Of a stretch of DNA of 34,657 nt, positions 2,769-18,724 are shown in pieces. The stretch is from Candidatus Azobacteroides sp. (lineage in GTDB: Bacteria; Bacteroidota; Bacteroidia; Bacteroidales; Azobacteroidaceae): assembly GCA_009778655.1 (NCBI GenBank), contig WRFZ01000168.1, positions 1-34,657 on the forward strand, read 5' to 3'. The notes under the pieces were generated by a model that was not told where the DNA came from, did not search any database, and was given only the letters and a program-made list of their open reading frames with translations. Each line of letters begins with the position of its first letter. The stretch's first letter is position 1. A program made the position numbers and the translations under genes.

Positions 2769-3995
2769 TTATTCCAACCATTTTTGAATAGAAGCCTTCA
2801 CTTGATCCAATGTCGGTAATTTGCTTATATCGGTATCATTCAGTTTCATTATTTCATTTTTATCGGGCGAAGGAATCGAGTCGTTTACATTCCTCAGCTT
2901 ATTAAGCGCTTGATTAAACAATGAATCTCTCTTGACATATTCGTCATAGAATCCATCCTCCATCAAATAAGGGACGCCCATACCCAATTCGAATTTTTCA
3001 ATCGGCATATAAAAAACAAAACCGGTAAACATATCTTTATAGGTATAATCATTTTTATAATAGGGCCAATCTTCAAACCGGTCATCGCCGAAAGGAGAAC
3101 CGTTGAAGTTAAACCCGGCATCTTCCAAATTCACGGCTTGAAAAGCGGCATCCCATTTGCCATCGTTGACGGCTTCCATTTTTTCAATGTTATTATAGCC
3201 GTTTATTCTTACATTAGCCACTCGTCCGGGATATTTGTTAAAGAGGAATCGTCCGGTATTTATATTCATTTTCCCCTCGTCGTAAGCAATATCGTACCGG
3301 TAGGCATGACGATAATTCATAATAACCAGCGCTTTACTTTTCGGATTATCTTTCTTCATCTGATCAAATGTATCTATGATAAAATCAGCCATAAGACTAT
3401 CCCTTACCATCGCATTTTCTAACATACCCATGTATTTGTCTGTTGTTTCTTCTCCTTCAACGTAAAGAATATCCGTAGGATACATTTGTATCTTTTTATC
3501 GCTTCGGAGGCTTTGATTGATTTGATGTATTCCTTTGATAAAATTCGAAAAATTAGGCTTTTCCCATAAAGGAAATTCACAATTTCTTTGAAAAATCAAA
3601 ACTTGTTTGTCAATTTCTTCTTTTGATAAATCCTCGGTTTGAAGAAAAATATCTAATCCCGGGTTTAAGTTTCTTGCCCCTACTTCGGTAAAAACGACGC
3701 CCACATGATTCACGAAATAAGGGTCACTCATTATATCTAAAAAAAGGTTATATTGAGTCATTTCCCGATGGTCTCTCTCACAAAGGATTACAATGTCATT
3801 ATTTTTAAACAATGAAAGAATATAATCTTTTGCCGACAGAGGCTTTTCATTCTTCAAAAAATGAATATAGGGTTCCAATTTTTCATTGAATTGATTCTTT
3901 TCGGCGGTTTGCGAAAAAGAAATATCAAATACAATACAACAACATACAAGCAACATTGTTTTCACCGCTCCTTTTGTTTTCATTTTTTCATTCAT
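2769..3995 (-). CDS. Secreted protein of unknown function, weakly EreA/ChaN-like
   Basis: A 408-residue protein with an N-terminal signal sequence (hydrophobic run MLLVCCCIVFDISFSQ), so exported. Met-5 is an alternative start that gives a more usual signal peptide. The mature part begins with a helical stretch, then NNDIVILCERDHREMTQYNLF, later GVVFTEVGARNLNPG, and in the middle KALVIMNYRHAYRYDI. The order of an E-x-D-H segment after a beta strand, a strand ending in E, and a late strand ending N-x-R-H recalls the erythromycin-esterase/ChaN-like fold, whose members use His and Glu residues in the same relative places. The match is weak and the true catalytic residues are not proven. It is a single gene, convergent with the outer-membrane protein gene. 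A promoter with the -7 element TATCTTTG lies upstream. No function is assigned. Confidence 0.7.
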   Translation of the reverse strand: MNEKMKTKGAVKTMLLVCCCIVFDISFSQTAEKNQFNEKLEPYIHFLKNEKPLSAKDYILSLFKNNDIVILCERDHREMTQYNLFLDIMSDPYFVNHVGVVFTEVGARNLNPGLDIFLQTEDLSKEEIDKQVLIFQRNCEFPLWEKPNFSNFIKGIHQINQSLRSDKKIQMYPTDILYVEGEETTDKYMGMLENAMVRDSLMADFIIDTFDQMKKDNPKSKALVIMNYRHAYRYDIAYDEGKMNINTGRFLFNKYPGRVANVRINGYNNIEKMEAVNDGKWDAAFQAVNLEDAGFNFNGSPFGDDRFEDWPYYKNDYTYKDMFTGFVFYMPIEKFELGMGVPYLMEDGFYDEYVKRDSLFNQALNKLRNVNDSIPSPDKNEIMKLNDTDISKLPTLDQVKASIQKWLE

Positions 3996-4179: not shown

Positions 4180-4235
4180 CCGTAGGTTCCGCTGTCGCTT
4201 CACCTACGATTAATAAAGTGTCGTCACTGCGTGAC
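4180..4235 (+). repeat. Two-hairpin interspersed repeat, copy 2 (plus orientation)
   Basis: Aligned to the reverse complement of 2713-2768 this segment is the same length, with differences scattered. It has the same CCGTAGGT...ACCTACG stem and the same AATAAA linker. The second stem is GTCAC-TGC-GTGAC, where copy 1 has GTCCC-TGC-GGGAC, so both arms changed together and pairing is kept. It sits in the 422-bp gap between the divergent genes at 3995 and 4418. Another small hairpin, GTCC-CTGCGA-GGAC, lies just upstream at about 4130. The rest of this gap holds the two promoters annotated separately. Confidence 0.75.
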
Positions 4236-4417: not shown

Positions 4418-5572
4418 ATGAAAACAACCACACTTATTTTGGCAGGTATCTGCGGGAGCGCTTTATCTGTTTTCGGGCAATTAAATGTCCAACACAACCG
4501 GTTTCGGGCCGGCGACGTACTTTATAAGCAACAAGTCGAATATGTCGAACCGGGAGAGGCCGGAGCCGACCGATTATGGAATTTCAGTAAACTGAAATCC
4601 ATTAACGACGAATACACGCTTGAATATGCTTTGCCTCCTTTGGAAGGCGACTCGGTATATATTCTTGGAAATACGCGACATAGAAAGAATGACGTAAAAG
4701 AGAATGAACTGATCGTCGGCAATGAACACAATACTATGTATTATTATCATTTGAAAGAAGATTCCCTGCTGCAAATGGGACACGAGAATCCGTCTGTGAT
4801 GCTTGCCTATACTTCTCCGATAGCGCTTCTGCATTTTCCGTTGAATTACGGACAAACCGTATCCTCCGGTTATCGGTCGCAAGGTCTTTATTCCGGAACG
4901 GTGGAAATACAAACCGAAGGAACGGTAACGACAACCGCCGACGCTTACGGTAAAATGATTCTGCCTTCGGGCGATACGCTCAACACCGTTATGCGGGTGA
5001 AAACCCTGCAAACCATTTTTGACCTCTCGGCCGGAAATAGCGATACAACCCGAACGGAGCATGTCGGCAAGCAGTTGGAAATCTATCGCTGGTACTGTAA
5101 AGGCTACCGTTATCCGGTTTTTGAAACGGTACGGAATATCAATACGGCCGACAACAGCGTCCTTTTCGCTACCGCTTTTTTCTTTCCTCCGCAAGATCAC
5201 CTGTATTTAGAAACCGACGCTGAGAATATGGCTTTATTGGATCAGTTGTGGGATTTGGATAAACAAAACATCGCCAACCCCGACGCCCGACAAACGGAAA
5301 CCGCGAATTTGAAAGATATTTTGACCTGCAAGATATATCCCGACCCGGTCAGCGCCCTTCTGACTCTGGAATACGAATTGAAAGCGGATGCCAAAGTCGG
5401 TTTTCAACTGTTCGCTATCAACGGACATCCCGTCAAGACGATCCACGCGAAAAATAGGGTAAAAGGCATCTATAGTGAAACGCTGGATTGTTCTTCCCTG
5501 CTTCCGGGAAACTATATCTTACGGATTACGGCAAACAATCTGTTTATGAATGAAGTGATTATAAAAAAATAA
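4418..5572 (+). CDS. Secreted protein with type IX secretion C-terminal sorting domain
   Basis: A 384-residue protein. Residues 1-20 are a signal peptide (MKTTTLILAGICGSALSVFG). The middle (about 21-300) is beta-rich and not recognised. The last 75 residues begin ILTCKIYPDPVSALLTLEY, contain GFQLFAINGHPVKTI and end LLPGNYILRITANNL...NEVIIKK. This is the pattern of the T9SS type A sorting domain: YPNP-like motif, seven-strand sandwich, G-x-Y-I-L-R/K and a basic end. The protein should cross the inner membrane by Sec and the outer membrane by the type IX system. It is the first gene of the RHS operon, 9 nt before the next start, which suggests that it accompanies the two RHS proteins to the cell surface. 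Its exact role is unknown. Confidence 0.8.
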   Translation: MKTTTLILAGICGSALSVFGQLNVQHNRFRAGDVLYKQQVEYVEPGEAGADRLWNFSKLKSINDEYTLEYALPPLEGDSVYILGNTRHRKNDVKENELIVGNEHNTMYYYHLKEDSLLQMGHENPSVMLAYTSPIALLHFPLNYGQTVSSGYRSQGLYSGTVEIQTEGTVTTTADAYGKMILPSGDTLNTVMRVKTLQTIFDLSAGNSDTTRTEHVGKQLEIYRWYCKGYRYPVFETVRNINTADNSVLFATAFFFPPQDHLYLETDAENMALLDQLWDLDKQNIANPDARQTETANLKDILTCKIYPDPVSALLTLEYELKADAKVGFQLFAINGHPVKTIHAKNRVKGIYSETLDCSSLLPGNYILRITANNLFMNEVIIKK

Positions 5573-5581
5573 AAATAATAA

Positions 5582-8500
5582 ATGATGAGAAAATATATTT
5601 GTTTCCTCCTGCTCTTTTCTTTTATATCTGTCTGTATAAAAAGCCAGTCGGACGGCATACAAGCGCCTGCGATTATACCCAAATCTCCGGAAGTAACCGA
5701 ATTGGAGCGCTATGGAGAATACCCGGTAAGTGAATATACTGGAATCCCGGGTATAAATATCCCTTTATATACCGTTAAAATAAAAGATTTTGAATTTCCT
5801 ATTTCTTTGGATTATCACGCTACGGGAATACAGGTCACCCAAGAAGCTACTTGGGTAGGATTAGGATGGAATTTACTGTCAGGCGGATGCATATCAATTT
5901 CGGCAGTGGGAGCTGTTGACGGGTCGCTGGCTTATGCCAGCACCAGTGATTGGGATTATATGTTGAATTATTCAAAACCCTATTGGCAAAGGCAAAGCAT
6001 GCCGCTTGGAGTTCCGACTACTTTTCCGGTAATAGATGGAAGCAGTTTTAATTTTAATGGTATAAGTCAATTTGATTTATTGTGCATGCTTAATGATAAT
6101 AGTAGAAAAGAATATAAAATAACGAGGGAAGCAAGATTGGGCGGCGGTGAAAGAGATATATATAATGTTTCTATTTTGGGTCAGTCTTTTAAATTTAGCA
6201 TACACCCCACTACCGGGGCATATATTTACAATGGAGAGAAAAATAAATACAAAATGGAGAAACAGGGCGATACATGGCTTCTTACCGATGAATTCGGCTA
6301 TCAGTATATATTTAAAAATACAGATAGAGAAATGATTTATATATCAGGCCAATACAACAGTCCGCAAGTAAGCTGGTATTTATCTCAAATTGTTTATCAA
6401 GGCAATATATTGGTAGAAATCAATTATAACAAGAGCGCTTTGGTACAAAAACTGCCTATTCTTAACGAATCCTGCGATTATCTTGACGGAAATAAATTTA
6501 GAGAATACAGATTTGCTTCCTATACAGAGGCTTATCATCCGTTATATATATCCAGTATTATTACTCCTTTAGACAGCATCGTATTTACTACCGGTTCCCG
6601 CGAAGATATGAGAGGGGCGCTTAAATTACAGGAAATGAAAGTGATGGACAGATCTTCCAAAACCGTGCAAAAAAGATATGAATTCAAATACGACTATTTT
6701 ACAGGGACAACCACAGGAGTGGGGGTATCATCCATACCGGATTATGTAAAGAAGAGATTGAAATTAACGCAGGTTGTGCAATGGGATAATTCGAACGCGA
6801 AAAGTATAAAATATGTGTTTGCTTATAATGAAAGTATAGCTTTGCCATGCAAAACTTCTTTTTCACAAGATTTTTGGGGCTATTATAACGGTTACATTAA
6901 CGCTTATCCGGGTGCGTTCAATCCTACGAATGGTACGGAATTTTTTTCTTCCAACAATACGCTCCTGCCTACGGTTAATTTCATAGCAAGCGGAGAAGAA
7001 CTTGCTCCCTGTTTACTTAATTTTACCGGCGCCGACCGGAGAGTGAACAAAGATGCTATCACTGCAGGCATGTTGAAAAGTATCACTTACCCAACCGGTG
7101 GAAAAACGGAATTTGAATTTGAGCCGCATATACTTGGCAATATGCCCTATCCTACCGAGCAGTCAATCGCCGGAGGTAATTATCAAATAGGAGATAATGG
7201 TTATCCTTCGTTTATGCCGAAGAGTAAAAGTTATCAGTTTGATTTGGAACGTACCGTTCCAAGAGCTAATGTTTGCGTTACGATTGTCGGAAAAAATTAT
7301 GACGTTTCAAAAATGGGTGAGTTTTATATAACGCTAACTGTAGCAGCAGGAAGCACATCGGCGAAAACGTATAAATATGCGATTACTACGGAAGCGCAAA
7401 AAGAAGAATTTAAAAAAAATAAGGTGGTTACCATAACAGACCAGGTTGATTTACCGGTAGGCAGAGTGGCTTTTTCAACGCATATCGACCCAAATTTGCC
7501 CAATCCGAATAATTATAATTTGAATAACGGAGTAATCGGAAGCTTGCATTTTACGTATGTTAAGGACAACGCAATAGCAGAAGGAACATCGCTTGGAGGA
7601 GGACTAAGGATAAAAAAAATAACAAACTATACAGATAACAGTATAAAAGCGTCAGTGAAACGGTATAACTATATCACAAAGGATGGAAAGCCCAGCGGAA
7701 AATTGATTCATCCGATGAAATTTACCGATCAATATTATACAAAAGAAGGCCTTCGGCCAAACAGAAATTATGATCTGCTTAACAGGATCAATTCATCCAA
7801 TGTCTGGAATTATTCCACGAGCGGATGTGAAGCGGTAGTAGGCTATGACCGGGTGGAAGTGGAAAACTTATCTTTGGATGAAAAATACAGTACAGGTAAA
7901 AGGATTATAGAATTCAATAATGCTGCCGTTATCAATGTATATTCTGAGATGGATATTTTCATTCCCTATAATAAAACCGCTTCTGTCCTCAACGGAAAGA
8001 TAGCCTCTTCCATTATTTTGAACGGCAATAACGATACGATCAACGTGGAAAAAAACACGTATAGTGTTGAAAACATGGAAAACAATTTCATCAATATCCG
8101 AGAAATGAAATGGCTTGGAGATATTCCAGAGTTTCAATTATACAGTGTCATACCTGTATTGATGGTATATCCCACAACTAACTATACTACTTATTTAAAG
8201 AAAAAGGAAGAATTTGCTTATTTCGGAACCGGTAAAGTCAATAAAACAACCGAGTTCGAGTATGATCCGTCAAATTATAAAGTGAAAAAAATAACGGAGA
8301 CGCTGGATAACAGTAAAAAGAAAATTACGGAATACCAGTATGGAGTGAGCAATAGCGCTTTATTGGCAAAAAACATGGTAAGCGTACCGATAAAGGAAAC
8401 GGTTTCGATGAACAGTACCCTCATTCAAACTAAAACGATGAACTACAATACCTCCGTTAATTCTGGTTTTGGTCTGGCGCTATCCAATGTCGCCATAAAA

Positions 8501-8953
8501 AATGGAAGCAATGCGGAAGAAATTCGGTTGAAATATGAGAATTACGATAACTTCGGAAATCCGGTTTATATCACCAAAGACGGTACCAACAATGTTGTTT
8601 ATATCTGGGGATATAATTACCAGCGTCCGATTGCAGAAATTAAGAATATCACTTATTCCCAACTGACAGGCATTATTTCGGCTGCCGATCTGAACGCTAT
8701 TGCCAAAAAGCCGGCACCGGCTGCGGCAGATATGGACCGGATCAACAACCTGCGGGACAATACGGCATTGAAAGATGCCCACATCACCACATTCTGGTAT
8801 CAACCCATGGTGGGGCTTATTCAGATAAAGGACCCGGCTAAGAAAGACGTCTATTTTGAATACGACACCTTCAACCGTTTAAAAAGCAGCTATATCATAG
8901 AAAACGGCACAAAAAAGATCGTTGAAGGTTACGATTATTATGTTAAACAATAA
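5582..8953 (+). CDS. RHS-associated partner protein (large secreted protein with YD-like repeats)
   Basis: A 1123-residue protein with a signal peptide (MMRKYICFLLLFSFISVCIKSQS). The start of the mature part has ERYGEYPVSEYTGIPGINIP, then LYTVKIKDFEFPISLDYHAT and VGLGWNLLSGGCISI. This is a conserved opening of large Bacteroidota proteins that sit directly before an RHS gene, and it resembles the GLGW region of SpvB/TcdB-type toxin carriers. The C-terminal third holds degenerate YD-type repeats (EFEYDPSNYKVKKITE, KYENYDNFGNPVYITK, YFEYDTFNRLKSSY) and YIWGYNYQRPIAEI, so it probably forms part of an RHS-like shell. Two Met codons overlap at the start; either could be used. It lies 9 nt after the T9SS gene and 13 nt before the RHS gene, so the three are cotranscribed. 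It has no toxin tip of its own. Confidence 0.78.
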   Translation: MMRKYICFLLLFSFISVCIKSQSDGIQAPAIIPKSPEVTELERYGEYPVSEYTGIPGINIPLYTVKIKDFEFPISLDYHATGIQVTQEATWVGLGWNLLSGGCISISAVGAVDGSLAYASTSDWDYMLNYSKPYWQRQSMPLGVPTTFPVIDGSSFNFNGISQFDLLCMLNDNSRKEYKITREARLGGGERDIYNVSILGQSFKFSIHPTTGAYIYNGEKNKYKMEKQGDTWLLTDEFGYQYIFKNTDREMIYISGQYNSPQVSWYLSQIVYQGNILVEINYNKSALVQKLPILNESCDYLDGNKFREYRFASYTEAYHPLYISSIITPLDSIVFTTGSREDMRGALKLQEMKVMDRSSKTVQKRYEFKYDYFTGTTTGVGVSSIPDYVKKRLKLTQVVQWDNSNAKSIKYVFAYNESIALPCKTSFSQDFWGYYNGYINAYPGAFNPTNGTEFFSSNNTLLPTVNFIASGEELAPCLLNFTGADRRVNKDAITAGMLKSITYPTGGKTEFEFEPHILGNMPYPTEQSIAGGNYQIGDNGYPSFMPKSKSYQFDLERTVPRANVCVTIVGKNYDVSKMGEFYITLTVAAGSTSAKTYKYAITTEAQKEEFKKNKVVTITDQVDLPVGRVAFSTHIDPNLPNPNNYNLNNGVIGSLHFTYVKDNAIAEGTSLGGGLRIKKITNYTDNSIKASVKRYNYITKDGKPSGKLIHPMKFTDQYYTKEGLRPNRNYDLLNRINSSNVWNYSTSGCEAVVGYDRVEVENLSLDEKYSTGKRIIEFNNAAVINVYSEMDIFIPYNKTASVLNGKIASSIILNGNNDTINVEKNTYSVENMENNFINIREMKWLGDIPEFQLYSVIPVLMVYPTTNYTTYLKKKEEFAYFGTGKVNKTTEFEYDPSNYKVKKITETLDNSKKKITEYQYGVSNSALLAKNMVSVPIKETVSMNSTLIQTKTMNYNTSVNSGFGLALSNVAIKNGSNAEEIRLKYENYDNFGNPVYITKDGTNNVVYIWGYNYQRPIAEIKNITYSQLTGIISAADLNAIAKKPAPAAADMDRINNLRDNTALKDAHITTFWYQPMVGLIQIKDPAKKDVYFEYDTFNRLKSSYIIENGTKKIVEGYDYYVKQ

Positions 8954-8966
8954 ATACGGCACAACA

Positions 8967-11900
8967 ATGAAAAAGACAATTTTATATATCATTCTTACTC
9001 TGTCGGGTATTGTGGGGATGTATTCTCAACCGGAAATTACCTCCAATTTGGGAACTATTGAAGGCAATTACACGTTTAAGATGGAACGAACGGCAGCGAA
9101 TGCCGCCAATACCTACTGTATAGGCTTTACTATTAATAACTCTTTTTCCATTACGATAAAAGAAACACTTTCCAACCCGAATTTTATGATTCAAGGTTAC
9201 TTTATCGGAACAAGCGCTACTCTGAACGACGGATTAAAGCTCAATACACCCTTTACTCTTTCCGCAGGACAATACAGGGTATTTTTAGTGGACCCAAATC
9301 CAAACAATAAAGCTTTTAAAATGGAAATGACTTTTACCGGCCAACAATCTGGCGGAGGAAGTACGGGAGGAACTCCGACGGGACTTCCTCTGAATGTTCA
9401 AGCCAATGGGGGAAACTACATCAAAACCGCTGTTCCCCGTACCGAAAAAAGCAGTGTTGCCTTTAATCCCGATAATAGCGAAATAATATCCATTCAATAT
9501 TTCGACGGATTGGGGCGTCCGGTAGAAACGGTACAAAACAAATTCACTCCTTCTCAAAAAGACCTTGTAACCCTGCAGGATTATGACGAATATGGAAGGG
9601 AATCTTTTAGCTGGCTGCCCACTTCGACTACGAATACCAACGGCGCATTTGTCGGCAGTATTGCTTCTCTTGCACAAACAGCGAATGGCGGCGACGCAAA
9701 ACCCTATTCCTACCTGGTGTATGAATATTCTCCGCTAAACCGCATCCAACAGCAGTATGGACCCGGCGCCGACTGGCAAGGCAATAGCAAAGGCGTAAAG
9801 ACCGAATACCTCGCCAACAGCGGAACTTCCGGAGCGCTGTCCTGCGCTCTTTTTATGACGGACGGTACGGGAGTCAATATCAAAGTGAAGAAAAACAATT
9901 TTTATCCCGATGCCCAGCTTTATGTTGTCAAGACAACCGACGAAGACGGCAACATCGGTTATCAATTCAAGGATAAGCTCGATCAGCTGGTGTTGACCCG
10001 GCAAATCCTCGGCGGAGCCAATCTGGATACCTATTATGTCTATGACGATTTCGGTAACCTGTGTTTTGTTCTTCCGCCCATGGCATCGGAAAAGCTGATC
10101 GCTACGAACGGTACCGCTTATGACGAAACCAACAGCACGCCGCTGAATCAATACGGCTACCAATACAAATACGACGGTCGCAACCGCTGCATCGCCAAAA
10201 GGCTTCCCGGCTGCGAGTGGATTTATTATGTCTATGATACGGCAGACCATCTGATTTTTACGCAGGACGGCGAAAACCGCAAGAAAAGCGAATGGCAGTT
10301 TTCCATTCCCGATGCTTTCGGTCGTGTGGTAATTACCGGAACCTGTAAAAACTCCCTCGGCTATTCCGCCGATCCGTTGAAAACGGTCGTAGTCAAAGGC
10401 GCGTACAATACTTCGCGAACCAATCTGGCAAACAGCTATACGGTTTCCGGCGTAACGCTTTCGAGTCCGGTTTATCTTACCGCCAATTACTACGACGATT
10501 ATGCCTTTACGGGAATCACCGAAGTTCCCAATAATGCGGATACGCAGTACAACGCGGAATCCGGTTATGCCACCCGTTACACCGTTAATTACAAAGGAAT
10601 GCCTACCGGAACCGTTACCGCGCAGATGAATCCCGACGGCACGGTATCTTCCTCCTATCTTTATTCGGTGATGTATTACGACTACCGAAACCGGCTGATA
10701 CAGACCAAGAGCAACAGTCAATTGGCGGGCGGGTTGGAAAAGGAATATATCGCCTACGATTTCATGAACAATCCGACGGGAAGGAAACATATTCATTCGG
10801 CTACCGGCAAGACCACTCAGACGGAAATCTATGTTTACGCTTACGACCACGCCGAACGGCTGACCAAAGCGACCCTCCAACTTAACGGAGGAACGACCAC
10901 CGCCATCGCCGAAAATACCTACGACGAACTCGGTCGGCTGAAGACCAACAAGAAAGGCGGGTTGGCGAATCTGAATACGACCTATGCCTATAATATCCGT
11001 TCGTGGATAAAGTCCGTCACGAATCCGTTGTTTACGGAGACGTTGTATTATAACGAATCCTACGGAGGAAGCGCCAAACTGTACAACGGCAATCTGTCGG
11101 CAATGAGCTGGAAGTTGTCCGGCGAATCCATGACGCGCGGCTATGCCTTTACCTACGATAACCTCTCGCGGCTGACCGTCGGCAATTACCTGGAAAACGG
11201 CGCTGCGAACACGAATTACAAAACAGCCTACAGCTATGATAAGATGGGTAATATCCTGACTTTGCAACGCTACGGAAAGAATACGGCAACTACTTATGGT
11301 ATAATTGACTATCAGGATGCAGCCTATAACGGGAACCGGTTGTATTCCAATGATGAGATGGCTTATAATATCAGTCTTGCCGAATCGGCGGATTTCAAGA
11401 AATATTCCCCTGCTAACCCGGCTCATGTTTACAATGCCAACGGAGCGTTGACAAAAGATATGAACAAAGGTATCTCGGATATTCAATATAATTTACTAAA
11501 TTTGCCACGCTTAATGGACATCAAAAATCCGGTGGCTGAAGCGAGAAACGAATATACTTATTCGGCAACGGGACAAAAGCTGAAAGTGGTGCAGAAATGG
11601 AATCCGAATTACGCCACGGCGCCGGTAGTCGGTTCGGCAATCAATACGAGTTCATTAACTTCGAGTAAAACGACGGAATATGCAGGCAATATGATTTACG
11701 AAAACGGCACGTTGAAACGGATATTGATAGACGGCGGATACATTGAAGGAGGCGCCTATTATTATTACCTAACCGATCATCAAGGCAATAACCGTTTGGT
11801 TGTCAATGCGAGCGGAAGCGCGATTCAAAAGAATCATTACTATCCGTTCGGCATGGCTTTTGCCGAAACTCCGATTGCCGAACAGGGCAAGCAGCCTTAC

Positions 11901-12776
11901 AAATACAACGGCAAAGAGTTGGACCCGATGAACGGATTGAACTGGTACGACTACTCTGCCCGCAACTACGACCCGGCATACGGCCGCTTCACGACCATGG
12001 ATCCGATGTGCGAAAAATATTACAACATCAGTCCGTATGCGTATTGTAATAATAATCCGGTGAATGCGATAGATTTGCAGGGGGATACTATTACAACCGT
12101 TATTAATACCACAATAACAAATTCTAATGGCAGCACAAGTGTTCAAAGCACGAGCTATTATTATGGGCAAAATACAAGTGGAAGCTACGGGTTTATTGAT
12201 AATAACGGTCAGACTTATTCCGGAGACAATACGTATGTAAACAATTTGACAACTGCGTTGAATGATTTACGTAACGGAGGAAATGTTGGAAACGAATTAG
12301 TTAGTGATTTGATGAATTCAACAAAGACGGTACAAATTGGACAGGGAAACAATGCAACAGATCCTAACGGAGCTTATATTAAATGGGATTCTAATAATAC
12401 ACAAGGTGGCTTTAATAAATTAGGTACCCAAGATAGACCATCTTTTATTGGTTTAGGACATGAAATGGCTCATATTCAAGATATTTGGAATGGAACAATA
12501 GATAATAAAACGTGGATTTCTTCTTCGATAACAGGTAAGGATCCTATTCTTAATGCAGAAAAATATGCTACTCATGTAGAAAATCAATTACGCGCAGAAA
12601 ATGGCATTACCCTGCGAGAATATTATGGTGTTAATAATTCAAATGGAGTACTAAAACCACTTACTAGTACAAAATTGATAAACAAAGATGGGAGTAGTAT
12701 TTTTTATCCCAATACTTATTATTATCGGACTATAAAGTTTTCTACTTACTCATTTCGTTATATTTGGAATTATTAA
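8967..12776 (+). CDS. RHS polymorphic toxin with HExxH metallopeptidase-like tip
   Basis: A 1269-residue protein from ATG 8967, chosen because it opens a good signal peptide (MKKTILYIILTLSGIVGMYS); a longer frame from 8922 would overlap the previous gene. After a beta domain and a Gly/Ser/Thr linker (SGGGSTGGTPTG) comes a Bacteroidota RHS N-terminal domain (SIQYFDGLGRPVETV..., DUF6443 type). Many YD repeats follow (YDGRNRCIAKRLPG, YDELGRLKTNKKGG, YDNLSRLTVGNY). The core closes with YYPFGMAFAE, NWYDYSARNYDPAYGRFTTM and SPYAYCNNNPVNAIDLQGD, the RHS boundary motif. The last about 235 residues are a separate AT-richer tip with GLGHEMAHIQD (H1165, E1166, H1169), a zincin zinc-binding motif, followed by EKYATHVENQLRAENG, whose Glu could supply a third ligand. 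The tip is therefore a probable metallopeptidase toxin. Candidate immunity genes follow at once. The target is unknown. Confidence 0.85.
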   Translation: MKKTILYIILTLSGIVGMYSQPEITSNLGTIEGNYTFKMERTAANAANTYCIGFTINNSFSITIKETLSNPNFMIQGYFIGTSATLNDGLKLNTPFTLSAGQYRVFLVDPNPNNKAFKMEMTFTGQQSGGGSTGGTPTGLPLNVQANGGNYIKTAVPRTEKSSVAFNPDNSEIISIQYFDGLGRPVETVQNKFTPSQKDLVTLQDYDEYGRESFSWLPTSTTNTNGAFVGSIASLAQTANGGDAKPYSYLVYEYSPLNRIQQQYGPGADWQGNSKGVKTEYLANSGTSGALSCALFMTDGTGVNIKVKKNNFYPDAQLYVVKTTDEDGNIGYQFKDKLDQLVLTRQILGGANLDTYYVYDDFGNLCFVLPPMASEKLIATNGTAYDETNSTPLNQYGYQYKYDGRNRCIAKRLPGCEWIYYVYDTADHLIFTQDGENRKKSEWQFSIPDAFGRVVITGTCKNSLGYSADPLKTVVVKGAYNTSRTNLANSYTVSGVTLSSPVYLTANYYDDYAFTGITEVPNNADTQYNAESGYATRYTVNYKGMPTGTVTAQMNPDGTVSSSYLYSVMYYDYRNRLIQTKSNSQLAGGLEKEYIAYDFMNNPTGRKHIHSATGKTTQTEIYVYAYDHAERLTKATLQLNGGTTTAIAENTYDELGRLKTNKKGGLANLNTTYAYNIRSWIKSVTNPLFTETLYYNESYGGSAKLYNGNLSAMSWKLSGESMTRGYAFTYDNLSRLTVGNYLENGAANTNYKTAYSYDKMGNILTLQRYGKNTATTYGIIDYQDAAYNGNRLYSNDEMAYNISLAESADFKKYSPANPAHVYNANGALTKDMNKGISDIQYNLLNLPRLMDIKNPVAEARNEYTYSATGQKLKVVQKWNPNYATAPVVGSAINTSSLTSSKTTEYAGNMIYENGTLKRILIDGGYIEGGAYYYYLTDHQGNNRLVVNASGSAIQKNHYYPFGMAFAETPIAEQGKQPYKYNGKELDPMNGLNWYDYSARNYDPAYGRFTTMDPMCEKYYNISPYAYCNNNPVNAIDLQGDTITTVINTTITNSNGSTSVQSTSYYYGQNTSGSYGFIDNNGQTYSGDNTYVNNLTTALNDLRNGGNVGNELVSDLMNSTKTVQIGQGNNATDPNGAYIKWDSNNTQGGFNKLGTQDRPSFIGLGHEMAHIQDIWNGTIDNKTWISSSITGKDPILNAEKYATHVENQLRAENGITLREYYGVNNSNGVLKPLTSTKLINKDGSSIFYPNTYYYRTIKFSTYSFRYIWNY
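11449..12061 (+). repeat. RHS core 3' segment, donor copy of a 613-bp direct repeat
   Basis: This segment aligns without gaps to 14394-15006 at a constant offset of 2945 bp. I counted about 47 mismatches, roughly 92% identity. It encodes the end of the RHS core from TKDMNKGISDIQYN to the boundary motif YAYCNNNPV. Identity stops abruptly where the variable tips begin. Confidence 0.9.
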
Positions 12777-12788
12777 TTTGTTTCTATA

Positions 12789-13385
12789 ATGAAAAAATAT
12801 ATATTCATAATATTGATATTGATGGAATCTTTTTCTATCTATGGCAGCAACAATCTCAGTTCTGAATCGGTGTCTAAAAAAATAAGAAAGATCGAATTAA
12901 AGATGCATGAAAAAGATAATATTTATATTAATTTATATAATAAGTTAAGAATAGATATTGATTTTATAAATCTGATGAATCTAAATTTGAAAAGTGATAC
13001 AATTTTTATACTACAAACCTATAATTTTATTGAAGGTTTTAATGAGTTATCCATAGCTATTGTTAATAGAAATGAAGAGTTTTTTTATATAGTAAGAGAT
13101 ACTTTACCTATTTACAAAAAGCCATTTTATAGAATATTGGATTATAAAAGAATGTGTCTATATAAAGTCAAAAAAGAATGTGGGTATTCTTTATATCCTA
13201 AATACATGATTCAACTTGTAAGTAAATGGGATATTGACGGATTGCGTAAAGAAGGGGAAACAAATTGGATGATTGGAGGAGGTACAATAACCGCGATTCG
13301 TATTATTTTGAAAAACGGAAAATATAATATTGATTGTATCAGTTTTAAAGAATTTTATAACCTCAAAAGAGATATGGTTCATTAA
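12789..13385 (+). CDS. Putative immunity protein for the metallopeptidase tip (exported, unknown family)
   Basis: A 198-residue protein with a likely Sec signal (MKKYIFIILILMESFSIYG) and no lipobox cysteine. The mature part is rich in Lys, Ile and Asn and I recognise no domain. It starts 12 nt after the stop of the RHS toxin, the usual position of an immunity gene, and shares the marked AT-richness of the toxin tip rather than the more balanced composition of the RHS core. That suggests that tip and this gene arrived together. The export signal implies neutralisation in the periplasm or at the membrane. It could instead be an unrelated small envelope protein; the immunity role is inferred from position only. 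Confidence 0.6.
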   Translation: MKKYIFIILILMESFSIYGSNNLSSESVSKKIRKIELKMHEKDNIYINLYNKLRIDIDFINLMNLNLKSDTIFILQTYNFIEGFNELSIAIVNRNEEFFYIVRDTLPIYKKPFYRILDYKRMCLYKVKKECGYSLYPKYMIQLVSKWDIDGLRKEGETNWMIGGGTITAIRIILKNGKYNIDCISFKEFYNLKRDMVH

Positions 13386-13442
13386 AAGTGATGATGTGGA
13401 ATTATAATGGAGGAAAATAATAATTCGTTAATTTATAAAATT

Positions 13443-13943
13443 ATGAAAAATGTATATTTAATAATGCTGTTGTCTGTTATGGTAGGATGCTCTAAAAAAA
13501 GCGATTTACCTTTTAGTGTCATTGATTATTCATGCAATAATGGATGGACTAGTGTATATTCGGTTAAAGTAGATAGTGTCGGGCAAACTTATATCCAAGG
13601 AGAGGATATAAAAAATGGAAAGTGGTTTATTCGAACGGAAATTTCCACAGCAACCTTAGATTCATTATGTACTATAGTAAACAAAATTGATTATACAAAG
13701 TTAGACACATTGTATGAGAAAAATTGTGTGGACTGCGGATATTATTACTTAATAATTAATCGGACAAAAGAGTCTGCTACAAAAGTATTGGTGAAAGATA
13801 ATAGCAATAATGATAAAGATATAGCTGAGATTAATGAACTTTCACATTTTTTAGATTCATTAGTGAGAACAATTCGTTCGAATATAGAATCAGTACAATT
13901 TGAAAGCAAAACGAAGGGTTTTTATCTTGTTTCGCCACCATAA
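13443..13943 (+). CDS. Putative immunity-associated lipoprotein
   Basis: The frame is open from ATG 13407, but ATG 13443 is preferred because it gives a standard lipoprotein signal, MKNVYLIMLLSVMVGC, with the acylated cysteine at residue 16. The mature protein is about 150 residues, acidic and Lys-rich, beta-like, with a C-x-x-C pair (NCVDCGYYYLI). It begins 57 nt after the previous gene and has the same AT-rich make-up. As the second gene behind the toxin tip it could be a second immunity protein, or the real one. I do not recognise the family. Nothing downstream in the same strand is coupled to it; the next about 400 bp are non-coding with a regulator remnant. Confidence 0.6.
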   Translation: MKNVYLIMLLSVMVGCSKKSDLPFSVIDYSCNNGWTSVYSVKVDSVGQTYIQGEDIKNGKWFIRTEISTATLDSLCTIVNKIDYTKLDTLYEKNCVDCGYYYLIINRTKESATKVLVKDNSNNDKDIAEINELSHFLDSLVRTIRSNIESVQFESKTKGFYLVSPP

Positions 13944-14250
13944 ATTTCTGAAGTGGCGAATCAATAATATTTTTGATTTTTTTATATTTAGTGTTGCTAA
14001 GAAAAATATCCATCGCTCAGTGTAGGCTTTGTCTTCATTGAGATAGAATAAGTAAGGCTCTTGTTTTGCAATACAATGAACGGTAAAAGACTACTTGCAT
14101 GTAACTCGCCATAACATAAGCAAAACAGCATATGAAAGTTTATTCAGAAGGAAATATTTTATGACAGGGGGTCATAAAATAGTATAAATGCATAACTACC
14201 CCAAGCTCGACGTGACGTGATGTTGCGTCGAGCTGATTTTATGCCCGGTT
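13944..14250. other. Non-coding stretch with two inverted repeats
   Basis: No credible gene. It holds a 10-bp perfect inverted repeat, ATTTTATGAC/GTCATAAAAT, at 14156-14180 with a 5-nt G-rich loop, and a 9-bp one, AGCTCGACG/CGTCGAGCT, at 14204-14234. The latter contains a 20-nt segment (14215-14234) matching 17465-17484 upstream of the intact regulator at 18 of 20 positions, so this is the leftover upstream region of a regulator copy. The T-rich run near 13965-13990 may end transcription of the lipoprotein gene, but no strong stem precedes it. Confidence 0.55.
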
Positions 14251-14340
14251 ACAATCCGACAAAACAAATTCCGTATCCGGAATAAGATGGCGGTTGATTC
14301 CGACAATTCGTTTCTGTTCGATTTTATATTTAGAAAATAG
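14251..14340 (+). pseudogene. Remnant of a LuxR-like regulator (last 29 codons)
   Basis: Read in frame this encodes TIRQNKFRIRNKMAVDSDNS and on to FDFIFRK and a TAG at 14338-14340. It matches the C terminus of the intact regulator at 17642-18061: I count 79 of 90 bases identical to 17972-18061. Only the recognition-helix end and tail survive; the first about 110 codons are missing. Since 14215-14234 matches the region upstream of the intact gene, the copy has suffered an internal deletion. It cannot encode a functional regulator. Confidence 0.8.
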
Positions 14341-14344
14341 GAAG

Positions 14345-15673
14345 ATGGTAGAGAAAGATGCCATTCCCGTAGGGAATAACGCAGTAGAATCCGTGACAAA
14401 AGATATGAACAAAGGCATCTCGGATATTCAATATAATTTACTAAATTTGCCGAGACAAATGGACATCAAAAATCCGGTGGCGGAAGCGAGGAACGAATAT
14501 ACTTATTCGGCATCGGGACAAAAGCTGAAGGTGGTGCAGAAATGGAATCCGAATTACGCCACGGCGCCGGTAGTCGGTTCGGCAATCAACACGAGTTCAT
14601 TAACTTCGAGTAAAACGACGGAATATGCGGGCAATATGATTTACGAAGACGGCACGTTGAAACGGATACTGATAGACGGCGGATATATTGAGGGCGGTCA
14701 GTACTTTTATTACGTTACCGACCATCAAGGCAATAACCGCTTGGTTGTGAATGCGAGCGGAAGCGCTATTCAAAAGAATCATTACTATCCGTTCGGCGTG
14801 GCTTTTGCCGAAACTCCGATTGCCGAGCAAGGCAAGCAGCCTTATAAATACAACGGCAAAGAACTTGACCAGATGAACGGACTGAACTGGTACGACTACT
14901 CTGCCCGCAACTACGACCCGGCATACGGCCGCTTTACTACCATGGATCCGATGTGCGAAAAATATTATTCCATTAGTCCGTATGCGTATTGTGCGAATAA
15001 TCCGGTAAGGTTTATTGATCCGGACGGACAAGACTGGTATGGGGATTTTCAGAATCTGGCACGACAGTTCAATCCAAATTTAAATAAAAACAATCAAGCT
15101 GAAATATTAGAGAAAGGACAAAAATATATCGGAGCAACAGATCAAGTCAAAGATGAAAAAGGGAATGTAATTGAAAATTATCGAAAAGATGGCAGTATTA
15201 TGTATTCCAATGAAACCGATGCATATAATCGAATGTGGAGCCAAGCAAATAAAGTAAACCGAGAACAATTGGCTGTAATAGGCGATGAAAATGTGTTAGT
15301 GTTACCGGAATATCTAAATGATAATACAACTTCCGAAGTAGAAAAATATGGATATTCTTGGAAAAACGGCAATATTACAGATGCTGATGGAAATACATTT
15401 AGTACAATAGCAACAATACACACTCACCAAGATGATCTTAAAGGCAAGTGGGGTTTTATTGCGGCTCCCGGTTTTGATGATCAGAAATATTTCTCTTATA
15501 GAACACCTGATAAACCTTATTTTACAATGGGGTATAATGGGAAAATATATGGTGAAATTGGAAATTCTAAAGGAAGACAAATACTTAGCAATATCATTCC
15601 CAAAGGCTACAATACGGTAAACGATTTGCTAAAAGGCGCTAAATTTCAACTATTAATAAAGAGTTTAAAATAA
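14345..15673 (+). CDS. Orphan RHS cassette with JAB-like toxin tip
   Basis: 442 residues if started at ATG 14345; the frame is also open from ATG 14294, but that part lies over the regulator remnant. After about 16 residues of unrelated junction sequence the protein runs as the end of an RHS core (TKDMNKGISDIQYN to SPYAYCANNPVRFIDPDGQD), nearly identical to the large RHS protein. It has no signal peptide and none of the earlier repeats. The tip (about 220 residues) is different: it contains STIATIHTHQDDLKGKWGF with H359 and H361, then APGFDDQKYF. The HxH followed by a later Asp is the metal-binding layout of JAB/MPN isopeptidases and recalls the JAB-like toxins fused to Bacteroidota RHS proteins. 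The stop overlaps the next gene's start. It is probably a silent cassette, expressed only after recombination into the main gene. Confidence 0.75.
   Translation: MVEKDAIPVGNNAVESVTKDMNKGISDIQYNLLNLPRQMDIKNPVAEARNEYTYSASGQKLKVVQKWNPNYATAPVVGSAINTSSLTSSKTTEYAGNMIYEDGTLKRILIDGGYIEGGQYFYYVTDHQGNNRLVVNASGSAIQKNHYYPFGVAFAETPIAEQGKQPYKYNGKELDQMNGLNWYDYSARNYDPAYGRFTTMDPMCEKYYSISPYAYCANNPVRFIDPDGQDWYGDFQNLARQFNPNLNKNNQAEILEKGQKYIGATDQVKDEKGNVIENYRKDGSIMYSNETDAYNRMWSQANKVNREQLAVIGDENVLVLPEYLNDNTTSEVEKYGYSWKNGNITDADGNTFSTIATIHTHQDDLKGKWGFIAAPGFDDQKYFSYRTPDKPYFTMGYNGKIYGEIGNSKGRQILSNIIPKGYNTVNDLLKGAKFQLLIKSLK
14394..15006 (+). repeat. RHS core 3' segment, cassette copy of the 613-bp direct repeat
   Basis: Gap-free copy of 11449-12061 at offset 2945. 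Differences are mostly at third codon positions, with a few clusters (for example at 14452-14459 and 14697-14710). The left end of similarity is sharp, at the T of TGACAAAAG, where the junction sequence holding the palindrome ATTCCC-GTA-GGGAAT (14363-14377) stops. Confidence 0.9.
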
Positions 15674-16287
15674 TGAATATCAAAAGAAATATAATAAGTA
15701 GTGTTCTATTAATGATATTTTTATTAATAGCATTTTGTTCGTGTAAGAAGCAAAATGAAATTGTGACGCTTCCAATGGATAAATTGTATATTCTTGAATA
15801 TAGATATACCCTTCCGGAAGAACATGAAGAACTTCGTTATAAATTTTATGTTGGAGGTTTCTGTGAACTGGACAAAGATTTTAGTGTAAAATATGCAAGG
15901 CGACTGTTTTACAATAGTAATGATTTCTATAATTCAGAGGATATTGTTCCCGATAGCTTACGCAGTGAAATTTCAAATATATTATTGAAATACCAAGCGG
16001 ATACAACATTTTTATATCAAGGAGGACTCAGAATCTATGATGGGAGTAAATATCGGTTTATCATACAAAAATACAATCAAAAAGATGTAACAATCAAGTT
16101 TGAACCTAAATTTTTACCTGAAGATTTGAAGTTTGTATATTCATATCTTTATGAGGATAGGGAAAAGACAGAAGACATAAGTACATATAACGAATTATTA
16201 GAGATGTTTGAAAATCAAGTTAAAGATGATACGCTTGAATTTCCTCCTCCGGAGCTTAAAAGTACAGTAAAATTTACGCTCCCTTGA
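15673..16287 (+). CDS. Putative immunity lipoprotein for the JAB-like tip
   Basis: A 204-residue protein. The first A of its ATG is the last base of the TAA of the orphan RHS cassette (TAATG), so translation is coupled, the strongest arrangement for a toxin-immunity pair. The N terminus, MNIKRNIISSVLLMIFLLIAFCSCKK, is a lipoprotein signal with Cys-22 or Cys-24 as acylation site. The mature part is acidic, rich in Tyr and Phe, with no domain I recognise, and ends with a short Pro-rich tail. Its AT-richness matches the toxin tip. The lipid anchor places it in the envelope. The immunity role is inferred from coupling to the tip. Confidence 0.68.
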   Translation: MNIKRNIISSVLLMIFLLIAFCSCKKQNEIVTLPMDKLYILEYRYTLPEEHEELRYKFYVGGFCELDKDFSVKYARRLFYNSNDFYNSEDIVPDSLRSEISNILLKYQADTTFLYQGGLRIYDGSKYRFIIQKYNQKDVTIKFEPKFLPEDLKFVYSYLYEDREKTEDISTYNELLEMFENQVKDDTLEFPPPELKSTVKFTLP

Positions 16288-16529: not shown

Positions 16530-17222
16530 ATGAAAGTTCTAATAAATTCAATACTATTAAGTTTGGGTGTTTCATTATTTGTTTCTTGCCAAGTTCAACA
16601 AAATGCAATAGGAAAATATTCAATAGTTCAACGAGGAAAATATCCTAAAATTATCCCTACAACATTTTATGTTACATTAAATAATGATAGCACCTTTAAT
16701 TATCTTTATCAGCCAAGTTGGTATAAAAAAGAAGTTTCTTTTGGCAATTGGAAAATGGATAAAGACAACAAGCGAGTTATAATAAACAGTTTTATTCAAG
16801 ATATTCATAATATTCCTGTTGTCGTAACGGAAACAAAAAATAACAATTATTCATTCCCTTTATTCGTTTTTGATAATCCGTTGAAATCGGATACTTCTGT
16901 AAAATGGGCGTTGAATGTGAATAATACAGACTATCCGCTGAATACCGACAGTTTAGAATTGGACAAAGGAATTGTTGTTGAACATTTTTATTTAACAGGA
17001 TGTATTGCACTTGAAGACAGTACCTACAGAGCTCCTTTCCCTTTGCAGGATACTATACAAAGCGAAAAGTATAATGTAAAGAATACAAGCAACAATCTGT
17101 ATCATATTTCTTTCCCTGCATTTGTTGATTATGACATATTCCAATACAAACCATTGCAGGATAGTTTGAAGTTAAATGGGAATACATTATTTTTTGAGGG
17201 AATAAGATTGAAGAGACGATAA
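16530..17222 (+). CDS. Orphan immunity-like lipoprotein
   Basis: A 230-residue lipoprotein: signal MKVLINSILLSLGVSLFVSC with Cys-20 as acylation site. The mature protein starts with a beta-type segment (IGKYSIVQRGK, FYVTLNNDSTFNYLYQ, GNWKMDKDNKRVIIN), a pattern seen in several small Bacteroidota lipoproteins. The later half (KWALNVNNTDYPL..., IVVEHFYLTGC) is also beta-rich and not recognised. It follows the toxin-tail remnant by 1 nt and is closed by a strong terminator. It may be an immunity gene kept after its toxin was lost, or it may have another envelope function. No frame damage is visible, so it is likely expressed. Confidence 0.65.
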   Translation: MKVLINSILLSLGVSLFVSCQVQQNAIGKYSIVQRGKYPKIIPTTFYVTLNNDSTFNYLYQPSWYKKEVSFGNWKMDKDNKRVIINSFIQDIHNIPVVVTETKNNNYSFPLFVFDNPLKSDTSVKWALNVNNTDYPLNTDSLELDKGIVVEHFYLTGCIALEDSTYRAPFPLQDTIQSEKYNVKNTSNNLYHISFPAFVDYDIFQYKPLQDSLKLNGNTLFFEGIRLKRR

Positions 17223-17641: not shown

Positions 17642-18061
17642 ATGGTTAATTCTCTTTCGGATTGTTATCTTCAATTGATTCAATACAATAAAGAACGATT
17701 GATTGAGTTGTTGAATCCAATCGTGGATATTCATTATCTGCATTTCCAACAGACGGACATTCATTCCCAAATACCTCATTTAACCCGGACATTCAATTAT
17801 GTCGAACAAGATACGTTAGAAAAAGAAATTTATGTTCACTTCGCAATTTTTATCCGTAACCTGTCTCAATTATGTCCGTCAATTACGCGAACGGAAACCG
17901 TCATCTGTTGCTTGGCTTTCCGCTTTCCGATGAAAATAATCGGCTTGTGTCTGGGTTATACTTCGACCGATACCGTTCGGCAACATAAATTCCGTATCCG
18001 AAATAAGATGATGGTTGATTCCGACAATTCGTTTCTATTCGATTTTATCTTTAGAAAATAG
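17642..18061 (+). CDS. Short LuxR-like helix-turn-helix regulator
   Basis: A 139-residue cytoplasmic protein. The N-terminal about 85 residues are helical, with a hydrophobic pattern and no recognisable sensor. The C-terminal segment, SITRTETVICCLAFRFPMKI through IGLCLGYTSTDTVRQHKFRI to RNKM, matches the LuxR-type HTH layout: E in helix 1, the turn before the recognition helix, T-V-R-x-H-x-x-x-I-R. This form of C-terminal HTH is common in Bacteroidota regulators with TPR sensors, but here the sensor is missing, so the protein is unusually short. It has its own promoter with the same box as the RHS operon promoter. A deleted copy of its end sits next to the orphan RHS cassette. A role in controlling the RHS operon, and itself, is a reasonable inference. 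It converges with the wbqC-like gene. Confidence 0.72.
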   Translation: MVNSLSDCYLQLIQYNKERLIELLNPIVDIHYLHFQQTDIHSQIPHLTRTFNYVEQDTLEKEIYVHFAIFIRNLSQLCPSITRTETVICCLAFRFPMKIIGLCLGYTSTDTVRQHKFRIRNKMMVDSDNSFLFDFIFRK

Positions 18062-18106
18062 GAGAATGGTTATTTCTTGACTTCGACACGGTGATACGGC
18101 AGGCTG

Positions 18107-18724
18107 TTACTTGGTCAACCAAAACGCCGCTTCCGGCCCCAAGTTGAACAATAAATCAATGATGCTGAGATTCGATTGAAAACCATACTTCGTTTCGAAC
18201 ACTTGATAGTAGGGACGGAAGTCCCGGATAAACGGTAATTTTTTCGGATGTATGACTTCCCGCAAATCCAAAACGTCCGGCGGAGGAGAGAAGACGTATT
18301 CGGTCGAGTAGGATACAGCCGGAGAAATGTCTAACAAAGAACAAATCAATTCCCGTAACGCTTCGTTAAAATCGAATAAAAAACCGGCCGGCTTTTCATA
18401 AAAAGGACGAAAATCAGCTTCATAAAACTCGAAAAAAGGAGTGGAATTGTAAGCCGAAACAATGGCGTTCCAATGCACATGCCGCCAATTTCCATGTTCG
18501 GCAATGCGAATATCTTTCGTTGGACATTTCAACGAATCGGGTTTGACAATCGGAATGCTGAGCGTTTGTCGTCCGCCGGCAGAAGCAATTACGCAACGAT
18601 TGCGATAGGTTTGCTTGACATAATTGCAATGCGCTTCAATAATCGCCCGGGGATGATTGCACATTTGAACGTAATACTCGACGGGAGCAAGATAAGCCGT
18701 TGATAAAAGGACGGTACTTACCAT
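18107..18724 (-). CDS. WbqC-like family protein
   Basis: A 205-residue cytoplasmic protein without a signal peptide. It starts VLLSTAYLAPVEYYVQM, followed by CNYVKQTYRNRCVIASAGGR and LSIPIV, the typical opening of the WbqC-like family, and later has NWRHVHWNAIVSAYNSTPFF and FFEFYEADF. Some family members sit in polysaccharide-synthesis clusters, but their reaction is not established; the Bacteroidota members are usually found directly after the signal peptidase gene, as here. The start is 13 nt after the lepB stop, so it is the last gene of the dapB-lepB-wbqC operon. Length is normal for the family. Confidence 0.85.
   Translation of the reverse strand: MVSTVLLSTAYLAPVEYYVQMCNHPRAIIEAHCNYVKQTYRNRCVIASAGGRQTLSIPIVKPDSLKCPTKDIRIAEHGNWRHVHWNAIVSAYNSTPFFEFYEADFRPFYEKPAGFLFDFNEALRELICSLLDISPAVSYSTEYVFSPPPDVLDLREVIHPKKLPFIRDFRPYYQVFETKYGFQSNLSIIDLLFNLGPEAAFWLTK

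What the first reader, a model, noticed from the sequence alone, without database searches (positions are those of the whole stretch)
11449..15673. Orphan RHS cassette set up for toxin-tip switching by homologous recombination
Seen: 14394-15006 is a gap-free copy of 11449-12061 at a fixed offset of 2945 bp (about 47 mismatches in 613 by hand), and identity ends exactly at the variable tips. Both copies are in the RHS reading frame. Known: in Enterobacteriaceae rhs loci, displaced orphan tips with partial core sequence lie behind the main gene and can replace its tip. Inference: one crossover would delete 2945 bp (the HExxH tip, its immunity genes and the regulator relic) and fuse the JAB-like tip in frame. 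Such cassettes appear little studied in Bacteroidota.
Basis: partly seen in the sequence, partly recalled or inferred. Interest (0 to 1): 0.8.

Follow-up and report, generated by a model that had tools for sequence, protein, structure and literature searches.

The report
Spare toxin tip behind Rhs gene
Behind a large toxin-delivery gene of a bacterium related to a termite-gut symbiont lies a spare toxin end with genes that probably protect its owner, left by a known kind of gene shuffling; it could in principle be swapped in, but nothing here shows that it is.

Summary
The main gene carries a Peptidase_M91 tip, the orphan a JAMM/JAB-fold tip; each is followed by immunity-like genes. Best reading: C-terminal displacement, known from Enterobacteriaceae. 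Two units [Rhs core, tip, immunity-like genes, 3' end of a regulator-like gene] sit head to tail, the regulator end repeating at 14250-14349 and 17971-18070. The layout recurs in the genus: 6 of 27 long Rhs frames have an orphan behind, one with a homologous JAB tip; the tip family also sits on a full-length Rhs in Niastella. Against active switching: dS 0.30, differences spread evenly, no fused form among 45 family genomes, no second strain to examine, and a simple deletion would remove the genes that probably protect from M91. What differs from the classical case is the setting: T9SS SprA in 35 of 38 genomes, T6SS VipB in 0 of 38, a T9SS-sorted protein gene beside 15 of 17 such Rhs genes.

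The parts
4418..5572 (+). secreted protein with a T9SS type A sorting domain, first gene of the Rhs cluster
   Evidence: PF18962 5.8e-7, TIGR04183 3.8e-7; homologue on 15 of 17 loci, window included, that hold a long Rhs frame of this kind
5582..8953 (+). 1123-aa partner protein, signal peptide and YD-like C-terminal part by eye; no Pfam family over cut-off
   Evidence: homologues in sister clusters
8922..12776 (+). main Rhs gene (signal-peptide-like start near 8967, by eye): DUF6443, Rhs core, M91 tip
   Evidence: PF20041 7.8e-37, TIGR03696 6.2e-18, PF14891 4.2e-17
11449..12061 (+). core repeat, copy in the main gene
12063..12776 (+). variable tip of the main gene, Peptidase_M91 with HExxH
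   Evidence: motif seen
12789..13385 (+). protein with signal peptide (by eye), possible immunity to the M91 tip
   Evidence: position and N-terminus; no Pfam match
13407..13943 (+). lipoprotein (by eye) with DUF6438, possible immunity
   Evidence: PF20033 4.7e-7, 30.5 bits, cut-off 30
14250..14349 (+). relic: last 100 nt of the regulator-like gene, directly before the orphan
   Evidence: 87% to 17971-18070
14350..14393 (+). 44-bp joint of unknown origin between relic and orphan core
   Evidence: no match to either flank in the alignments
14294..15673 (+). orphan Rhs frame (partial core + tip); no signal peptide by a simple heuristic
   Evidence: (TIGR03696 1.2e-20)
14394..15006 (+). core repeat, orphan copy
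15008..15673 (+). variable tip of the orphan, JAMM/JAB fold
   Evidence: model pLDDT 83.6; top matches JAMM proteins; PF14464 in 3 of 11 relatives
15673..16287 (+). lipoprotein (by eye), likely immunity to the JAB tip
   Evidence: a homologue (43%) follows the JAB tip in G004 as well; the gene behind the G032 JAB tip is unrelated
16530..17222 (+). second lipoprotein (by eye) of the orphan cassette; weak relative in G010 (E 2.4e-4)
17642..18061 (+). 139-aa regulator-like gene at the right edge, open throughout; its 3' end recurs as the 14250 relic
18107..18724 (-). chromosomal flank gene (WbqC-like, name recalled), found in 33 of 38 genus genomes
   Evidence: no Rhs or regulator match within the 2.2-5.4 kb held beyond it in 6 relatives

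Best explanation
This is a displaced Rhs C-terminal cassette. One allele of the locus ended in the JAB tip with its lipoprotein genes and the regulator-like gene behind. A block from a second allele, with an M91 tip, its own immunity-like genes and the same regulator end, was inserted at the Rhs core. The core now exists twice, the M91 block sits between, and the JAB cassette was pushed into a silent place behind the gene (shown: anatomy, repeats, recurrence; inferred: order of events and the recombination step). The main protein, with signal peptide and a T9SS-linked neighbour, is probably carried to the cell surface and delivers a peptidase-like tip to competing bacteria, and periplasm-facing lipoproteins protect the owner (inferred). 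Homologous recombination between the core copies could bring the JAB tip back; a crossover between the regulator repeats would instead remove the JAB cassette (inferred, not observed).
For: Exact ungapped in-frame repeat. Two repeats bound the structure, core and regulator 3' end. dN/dS 0.11 and equal branches of the two copies, 0.042 and 0.045, among 12 other cores: both mostly diverged as working coding sequence. The main/orphan pairs of G000, G032 and G010 are supported clades, 3 of the 3 such pairs in that tree. 6 of 27 long Rhs frames have a same-strand orphan within 6 kb, all 6 among the 16 with at least 3 kb held behind. G032 carries a homologous JAB tip as an orphan behind a full-length Rhs; Niastella carries it on a 1566-aa frame with Rhs parts. 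A partial M91-like match lies on an orphan in G036. JAB tip and immunity-like gene are linked again in G004. Core G+C near 0.5 falls to 0.26-0.34 over the tips and following genes, as described for rhs tips in Serratia (PMC2935791).
Against: The order of events cannot be read from one genome. The core copies are less alike than in E. coli, where they are called identical within a locus, or in Salmonella, 95% over 522 bp; but Serratia fragments at 91.6% amino-acid identity are comparable with 94.6% here. In G007:C33 the orphan core matches another genome best, and in G001 the two orphans match each other and other genomes better than their main gene. Of long frames only 7 of 26 have their best core match in the same genome. 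The 44-bp joint has no explained origin. The gene behind the G032 JAB tip is not related to the one here. Immunity function rests on position and lipoprotein signals only.
Confidence: 0.75

Rival explanations
1. Active switch: the cassette is a reserve, and recombination between the two core copies happens in the living population so that some cells deliver the JAB tip.
For: In-frame repeat of 613 bp at 92.3% with a longest identical run of 59 bp; recombination between main and orphan over a 522-bp, 95% repeat is reported for Salmonella (PMC3967940); tip family on a full-length Rhs in Niastella.
Against: No exchanged tract: the longest identical run fits a random spread, P 0.30; dS 0.30; no fused form in the family search (4 of 45 genomes with a tip match, frames of 478, 345, 251 and 65 aa, the 251-aa one cut by a contig end); deletion would remove the M91-side immunity-like genes.
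Confidence: 0.15
2. Silent immunity store: selection keeps the immunity genes of the orphan; the toxin fragment is a passenger.
For: No signal peptide on the orphan by heuristic, two open lipoprotein genes follow it, and orphan domains with immunity genes as defence are proposed for Gilliamella apicola (PMC8125069, passages).
Against: Orphan core and tip are open, and the orphan branch is no longer than the main one.
Confidence: 0.3
3. Tandem duplication within the genome followed by decay of the rear copy.
For: Head-to-tail repeats with the same flank on the right.
Against: Tips and immunity-like genes of the two units show no match to each other; synonymous changes dominate and the orphan core is not faster.
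Confidence: 0.05
4. Assembly chimera of two strain alleles in a draft genome.
For: Draft of 182 contigs; 14 of 84 cores in the set lie within 300 bp of a contig end.
Against: The joint 14350-14393 holds sequence found in neither flank, not a shared word; the main-then-orphan layout is found in five other genomes.
Confidence: 0.05
5. The orphan is itself made and exported, or acts inside the cell as a toxin-antitoxin pair.
For: An ATG lies just before the core; the G032 JAB orphan begins with a signal peptide; a toxin-antitoxin role is claimed for Salmonella Rhs elements (PMC7043789, title and start of abstract only).
Against: No signal peptide in the window's orphan; 3 of 39 orphans pass the heuristic against 16 of 27 long frames, so the heuristic also misses some.
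Confidence: 0.15

Closest known systems
rhs C-terminal displacement arrays of Enterobacteriaceae (Jackson 2009, PMC2935791)
   Same: full-length gene, then partial core fragments with unrelated tips in the same orientation, low G+C tips, core fragments close to the gene in front
   Different: other phylum; DUF6443-type Rhs with signal peptide and T9SS-linked neighbour; a regulator-gene end is repeated as well; core copies 92.3% alike in DNA
Salmonella LT2 rhs main/orphan pair (Koskiniemi 2014, PMC3967940)
   Same: main gene plus one orphan with immunity gene and a core repeat of similar size (522 bp, 95%, against 613 bp, 92.3%)
   Different: recombinant junctions were detected there; here only the anatomy is known
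Tox-JAB-1 polymorphic toxin tips of Bacteroidetes Rhs (Zhang 2012, PMC3482391)
   Same: JAB-type tip with HxH and D on Rhs cores of Bacteroidota
   Different: the window's tip itself matches no Pfam JAB model up to E 1; its immunity gene was not compared with their Imm65
Apibacter Rhs genes beside T9SS type A sorting genes (PMC8125069)
   Same: Bacteroidota Rhs with a T9SS type A neighbour, thought not to be T6SS effectors
   Different: SpvB and TcdB N-termini are mentioned there; here DUF6443 and a separate partner protein

Membership tests
displaced orphan Rhs cassette | partial core plus tip behind a full-length rhs gene, same orientation | tested here: met
displaced orphan Rhs cassette | core fragment closest to the core of the gene in front | tested here: met
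   91.7% within the locus against 72.9% or less in the other rows listed; clade 99/98
displaced orphan Rhs cassette | tips unrelated to each other | tested here: met
   M91 against JAMM fold; identity ends at the edge; no blastp match between them
displaced orphan Rhs cassette | linked immunity gene that protects from the tip | tested here: inconclusive
   linkage repeated in G004, not in G032; protection not testable here
displaced orphan Rhs cassette | orphan tip found attached in other strains of the species | not testable with these tools
   one genome per species is held; Niastella is a distant relative
switching main/orphan pair as in Salmonella | recombinant junction present in the population | not testable with these tools
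   no reads
JAB/JAMM domain | JAMM fold | tested here: met
JAB/JAMM domain | HxH and D plus a glutamate | tested here: met
   E86, H138, H140, D158 invariant in 11 sequences; that E86 is the JAMM glutamate is inferred
Pfam JAB-type toxin models | match of the window's tip | tested here: not met
   no JAB model up to E 1 for the window's tip; Prok-JAB in 3 of 11 relatives, best 7.6e-5
Peptidase_M91 | model match and HExxH | tested here: met
   PF14891 63.5 bits, cut-off 25; motif
T6SS Rhs effector | T6SS in the genome | tested here: inconclusive
   VipB 0 of 38, control E. coli found; the model may miss Bacteroidales systems and the drafts are incomplete
T9SS-linked Rhs | T9SS translocon in the genome and type A gene in the cluster | tested here: met
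   SprA in G000 and in 35 of 38; PF18962; export by T9SS itself not tested

The most novel reading that the evidence does not exclude
In this T9SS-bearing Bacteroidales lineage, Rhs loci are built from exchangeable units [core - tip - immunity - flank] with direct repeats on both sides, which enter and leave as blocks. The core repeat decides which tip is displayed and the flank repeat lets the spare unit be lost: a two-repeat cassette exchange tied to T9SS rather than T6SS. The window shows both repeats; that this is a general rule of the genus is weakly supported after the stricter control, so I lowered the probability from 0.25.
Probability: 0.18. Interest if true: 0.6.

Novelty: new member of a known kind. 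Interest (0 to 1): 0.36.

Why it matters
It extends tip displacement, worked out for rhs genes of Enterobacteriaceae, to DUF6443-type Rhs genes of a T9SS-bearing Bacteroidales genus, one of whose members is a Candidatus Azobacteroides bin, and shows that the layout recurs in that genus. If switching were seen here, it would show that the same toxin shuffling serves a different export route.

Tried and rejected
Chance repeat: rejected by 613 ungapped bp at 92.3%. Recent gene conversion: no tract seen. Neutral decay of the orphan: not supported by codon positions or branch lengths; polarising the 11 amino-acid differences against relatives gave a mixed picture. The regulator-like gene as regulator of the Rhs genes: of 10 genomes with a match (own included) I looked at the surroundings in two others, G024 (two places) and G036 (one, broken copy); by eye they lie beside small-peptide genes (NVEALA-like, name recalled) or a radical-SAM-like gene, not beside Rhs genes. 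It is therefore treated as flank carried along. A conserved site for the Rhs locus: in 6 relatives taken (of 32 others with the flank gene) wbqC and lepB are neighbours in 6 and dapB is seen in 4 (names recalled), with no match to the Rhs, partner, type A or regulator genes in the stretches held. More JAB tips: order search 9 of 393 genomes, phylum search 9 of 395; many of these match only the first 40-62 residues, two of those on long frames of 1185 and 1220 aa, which I do not count as JAB tips. Two tips sit on frames of middling length (L072 626 aa; G209 663 aa with a 96-aa Rhs piece in another frame before it). Viral contigs: no relative. Plasmids: 1060 records match, 10 listed; among those the match covers the core in nearly all, one (a cyanobacterium) reaches 47 residues into the tip; two Bacteroides records looked at, at least one with several housekeeping genes, so the 'plasmid' label may be wrong. 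Flank repeats: the DNA before an orphan recurs behind its cassette in 10 of the 34 orphans with enough sequence (of 39), against 0 of 20 and 3 of 503 random segments and 8 of 100 near and 2 of 30 far genes with a gap in front (Fisher P 0.003 and 0.03). But several of the 10 are homology between coding stretches (G026, G007:C166, G023:C308, and the regulator piece of the window itself). Counting only repeats that are mostly non-coding on both sides, 3 of 34 stand against 4 of 100 and 0 of 30, P 0.37, 0.24 and pooled 0.16, so no general rule is shown. No PDB sequence relative of the JAB tip up to E 1. Rows dropped: 91 core frames were cut to 84 by a length rule, and the tree kept 37 of at least 70 aa, which leaves out the pairs of G001, G007:C33 and G026. 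One search prints a wrong core column (index slip), put right from then on. Papers: PMC2935791 and PMC3967940 passages and one section each; PMC3482391 and PMC8125069 passages; PMC7073777 and PMC7043789 titles and abstract starts in listings only. No report of such arrays in this lineage stood in the rows listed for Azobacteroides + rhs (1 of 1), T9SS + rhs (13 of 13), Flavobacterium/cassette (8 of 8), termite (3 of 3) and Bacteroides + orphan (10 of 34); subscription papers are not in that library.
Full report
Observation. The direct repeat is exactly as described: 11449-12061 and 14394-15006, ungapped, offset 2945, 47 differences in 613. Outside the edges identity is at background. On the right the copies part where the tips begin; the left edge cuts the core. 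Both copies are open in the Rhs frame.

Anatomy. On the plus strand: a T9SS type A sorted protein (4418-5572), a 1123-aa partner (5582-8953), the main Rhs gene (8922-12776) with DUF6443, Rhs core and a Peptidase_M91 tip, a protein with signal peptide and a DUF6438 lipoprotein, then 100 nt that repeat the 3' end of a regulator-like gene (14250-14349), a 44-bp joint, the orphan core, the JAB tip (to 15673), two lipoproteins (15673-16287, 16530-17222), and the regulator-like gene (17642-18061), whose end at 17971-18070 is the partner of the relic. Signal peptides and lipoprotein signals were judged by eye. Thus two units [core, tip, immunity-like genes, regulator end] lie head to tail.

Age and mode. 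The two core copies differ by 31 synonymous and 16 non-synonymous steps, dS 0.299, dN 0.034; the G010 pair gives dS 0.218, dN 0.039 over 426 aligned columns. Mismatches are spread as expected by chance: longest identical run 59, P 0.30. Among 12 other cores the branches of main and orphan are equal (0.042 and 0.045). Of 48 differing positions in the 612-nt codon span (one lies just outside the repeat), 12 look derived in the main copy, 14 in the orphan, 22 are unclear. In the shorter 234-nt tree the main branch is longer (0.13 against 0.023). So the copies mostly diverged as coding sequence under constraint and have not been homogenised lately. That fits two alleles brought together better than a duplicate left to decay, and it speaks against frequent exchange.

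Relatives. The genus has 38 genomes in the set searched (own included), mostly drafts. Candidatus Azobacteroides pseudotrichonymphae is a termite-gut protist symbiont (abstract start of PMC5478533). Rhs cores over the cut-off occur in 24 of 38 genomes. I compared 84 cores from the stretches I took (27 long frames with the core after residue 700, 39 orphans, 18 cut at the front). For 44 of 83 with a match, the best match is in the same genome (7 of 26 long frames, 24 of 39 orphans, 13 of 18 cut); shuffled labels give 4.7 on average, 16 at most. In a tree of 37 cores the three same-contig main/orphan pairs present, G000, G032 and G010, are supported clades. Six of 27 long frames have an orphan within 6 kb behind; all six are among the 16 with at least 3 kb held behind. 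Against a uniform picture: in G007:C33 and G001 the orphan does not match its main gene best.

Tips change context. A homologous JAB tip is an orphan behind a full-length Rhs in G032, lies at a contig end in G004 with a homologue of the same immunity-like gene behind, while the gene behind the G032 tip is unrelated. It sits on a full-length 1566-aa frame in Niastella. An M91-like match of 69 residues lies on an orphan in G036. This supports tips as movable modules; it does not show a switch in this species.

Flank repeats. As the regulator end does in the window, DNA before an orphan recurs behind its cassette in 10 of 34 testable orphans, against 8 of 100 and 2 of 30 control genes. A stricter count of non-coding repeats leaves 3 of 34 against 4 of 100 and 0 of 30, not significant. 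The window's own pair of repeats stands; the general rule does not. A unit that carries its right flank along, as in the circular-intermediate model of Jackson 2009 (PMC2935791), would leave such a trace.

Delivery. SprA of the T9SS is present in 35 of 38 genomes including the window's; the three without it also lack Rhs cores. The T6SS sheath model VipB matches none of 38, with the caveat that it may miss Bacteroidales systems. A homologue of the type A gene is on 15 of 17 loci with a long Rhs frame of this kind, window included. A link of Rhs with T9SS type A genes was already noted for Apibacter (PMC8125069).

Mechanism. Most likely the JAB cassette was displaced by insertion of an M91 block from another allele of the same locus. 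It is probably silent as it stands: truncated core, no signal peptide by heuristic. A core-to-core crossover would restore its display, but would delete the M91-side immunity-like genes unless the locus is first duplicated, as proposed for Salmonella (PMC3967940). Peptidase-like tips and lipoprotein genes suggest action in the target's periplasm; this is inference.

Verdict. A real and well-formed orphan Rhs cassette, a new member of a known kind in a setting with different delivery; the switching claim is plausible and untested.

Noticed in passing
L081 and L082: Six and eight core-bearing frames in a row, long arrays of partial Rhs cores, in a Bacteroidales and a Flavobacteriaceae bin.
   Followed up: no
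L076 9638-10696, L077 9638-10699: JAB tips on short proteins with a shared signal-peptide-like N-terminus and only the end of an Rhs core: perhaps a compact export module of its own.
   Followed up: partly
L038 8167-9201: The G032 JAB orphan begins with a signal peptide, unlike the window's orphan; the partner gene in front is split into two frames.
   Followed up: partly
L043 (G036:C86): Partner gene followed by an orphan core with an M91-like match; no long Rhs frame in the 12.3 kb fetched.
   Followed up: no
G000:C11 622-2184: A third Rhs core of another kind in the same genome on a 3.4-kb contig.
   Followed up: no
2713-2768 and 4180-4235: A 56-nt inverted repeat (86%) flanks the gene at 2769-3995.
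   Followed up: no
G002, G003: The two smallest genomes of the genus (1.2 and 1.0 Mb) lack both Rhs cores and SprA; so does G020 (1.4 Mb).
   Followed up: no
L162: A Bacteroides finegoldii 'plasmid' record carries housekeeping genes such as miaB and truB and may be a chromosome piece; it holds a short frame annotated as JAB-like toxin 1.
   Followed up: no
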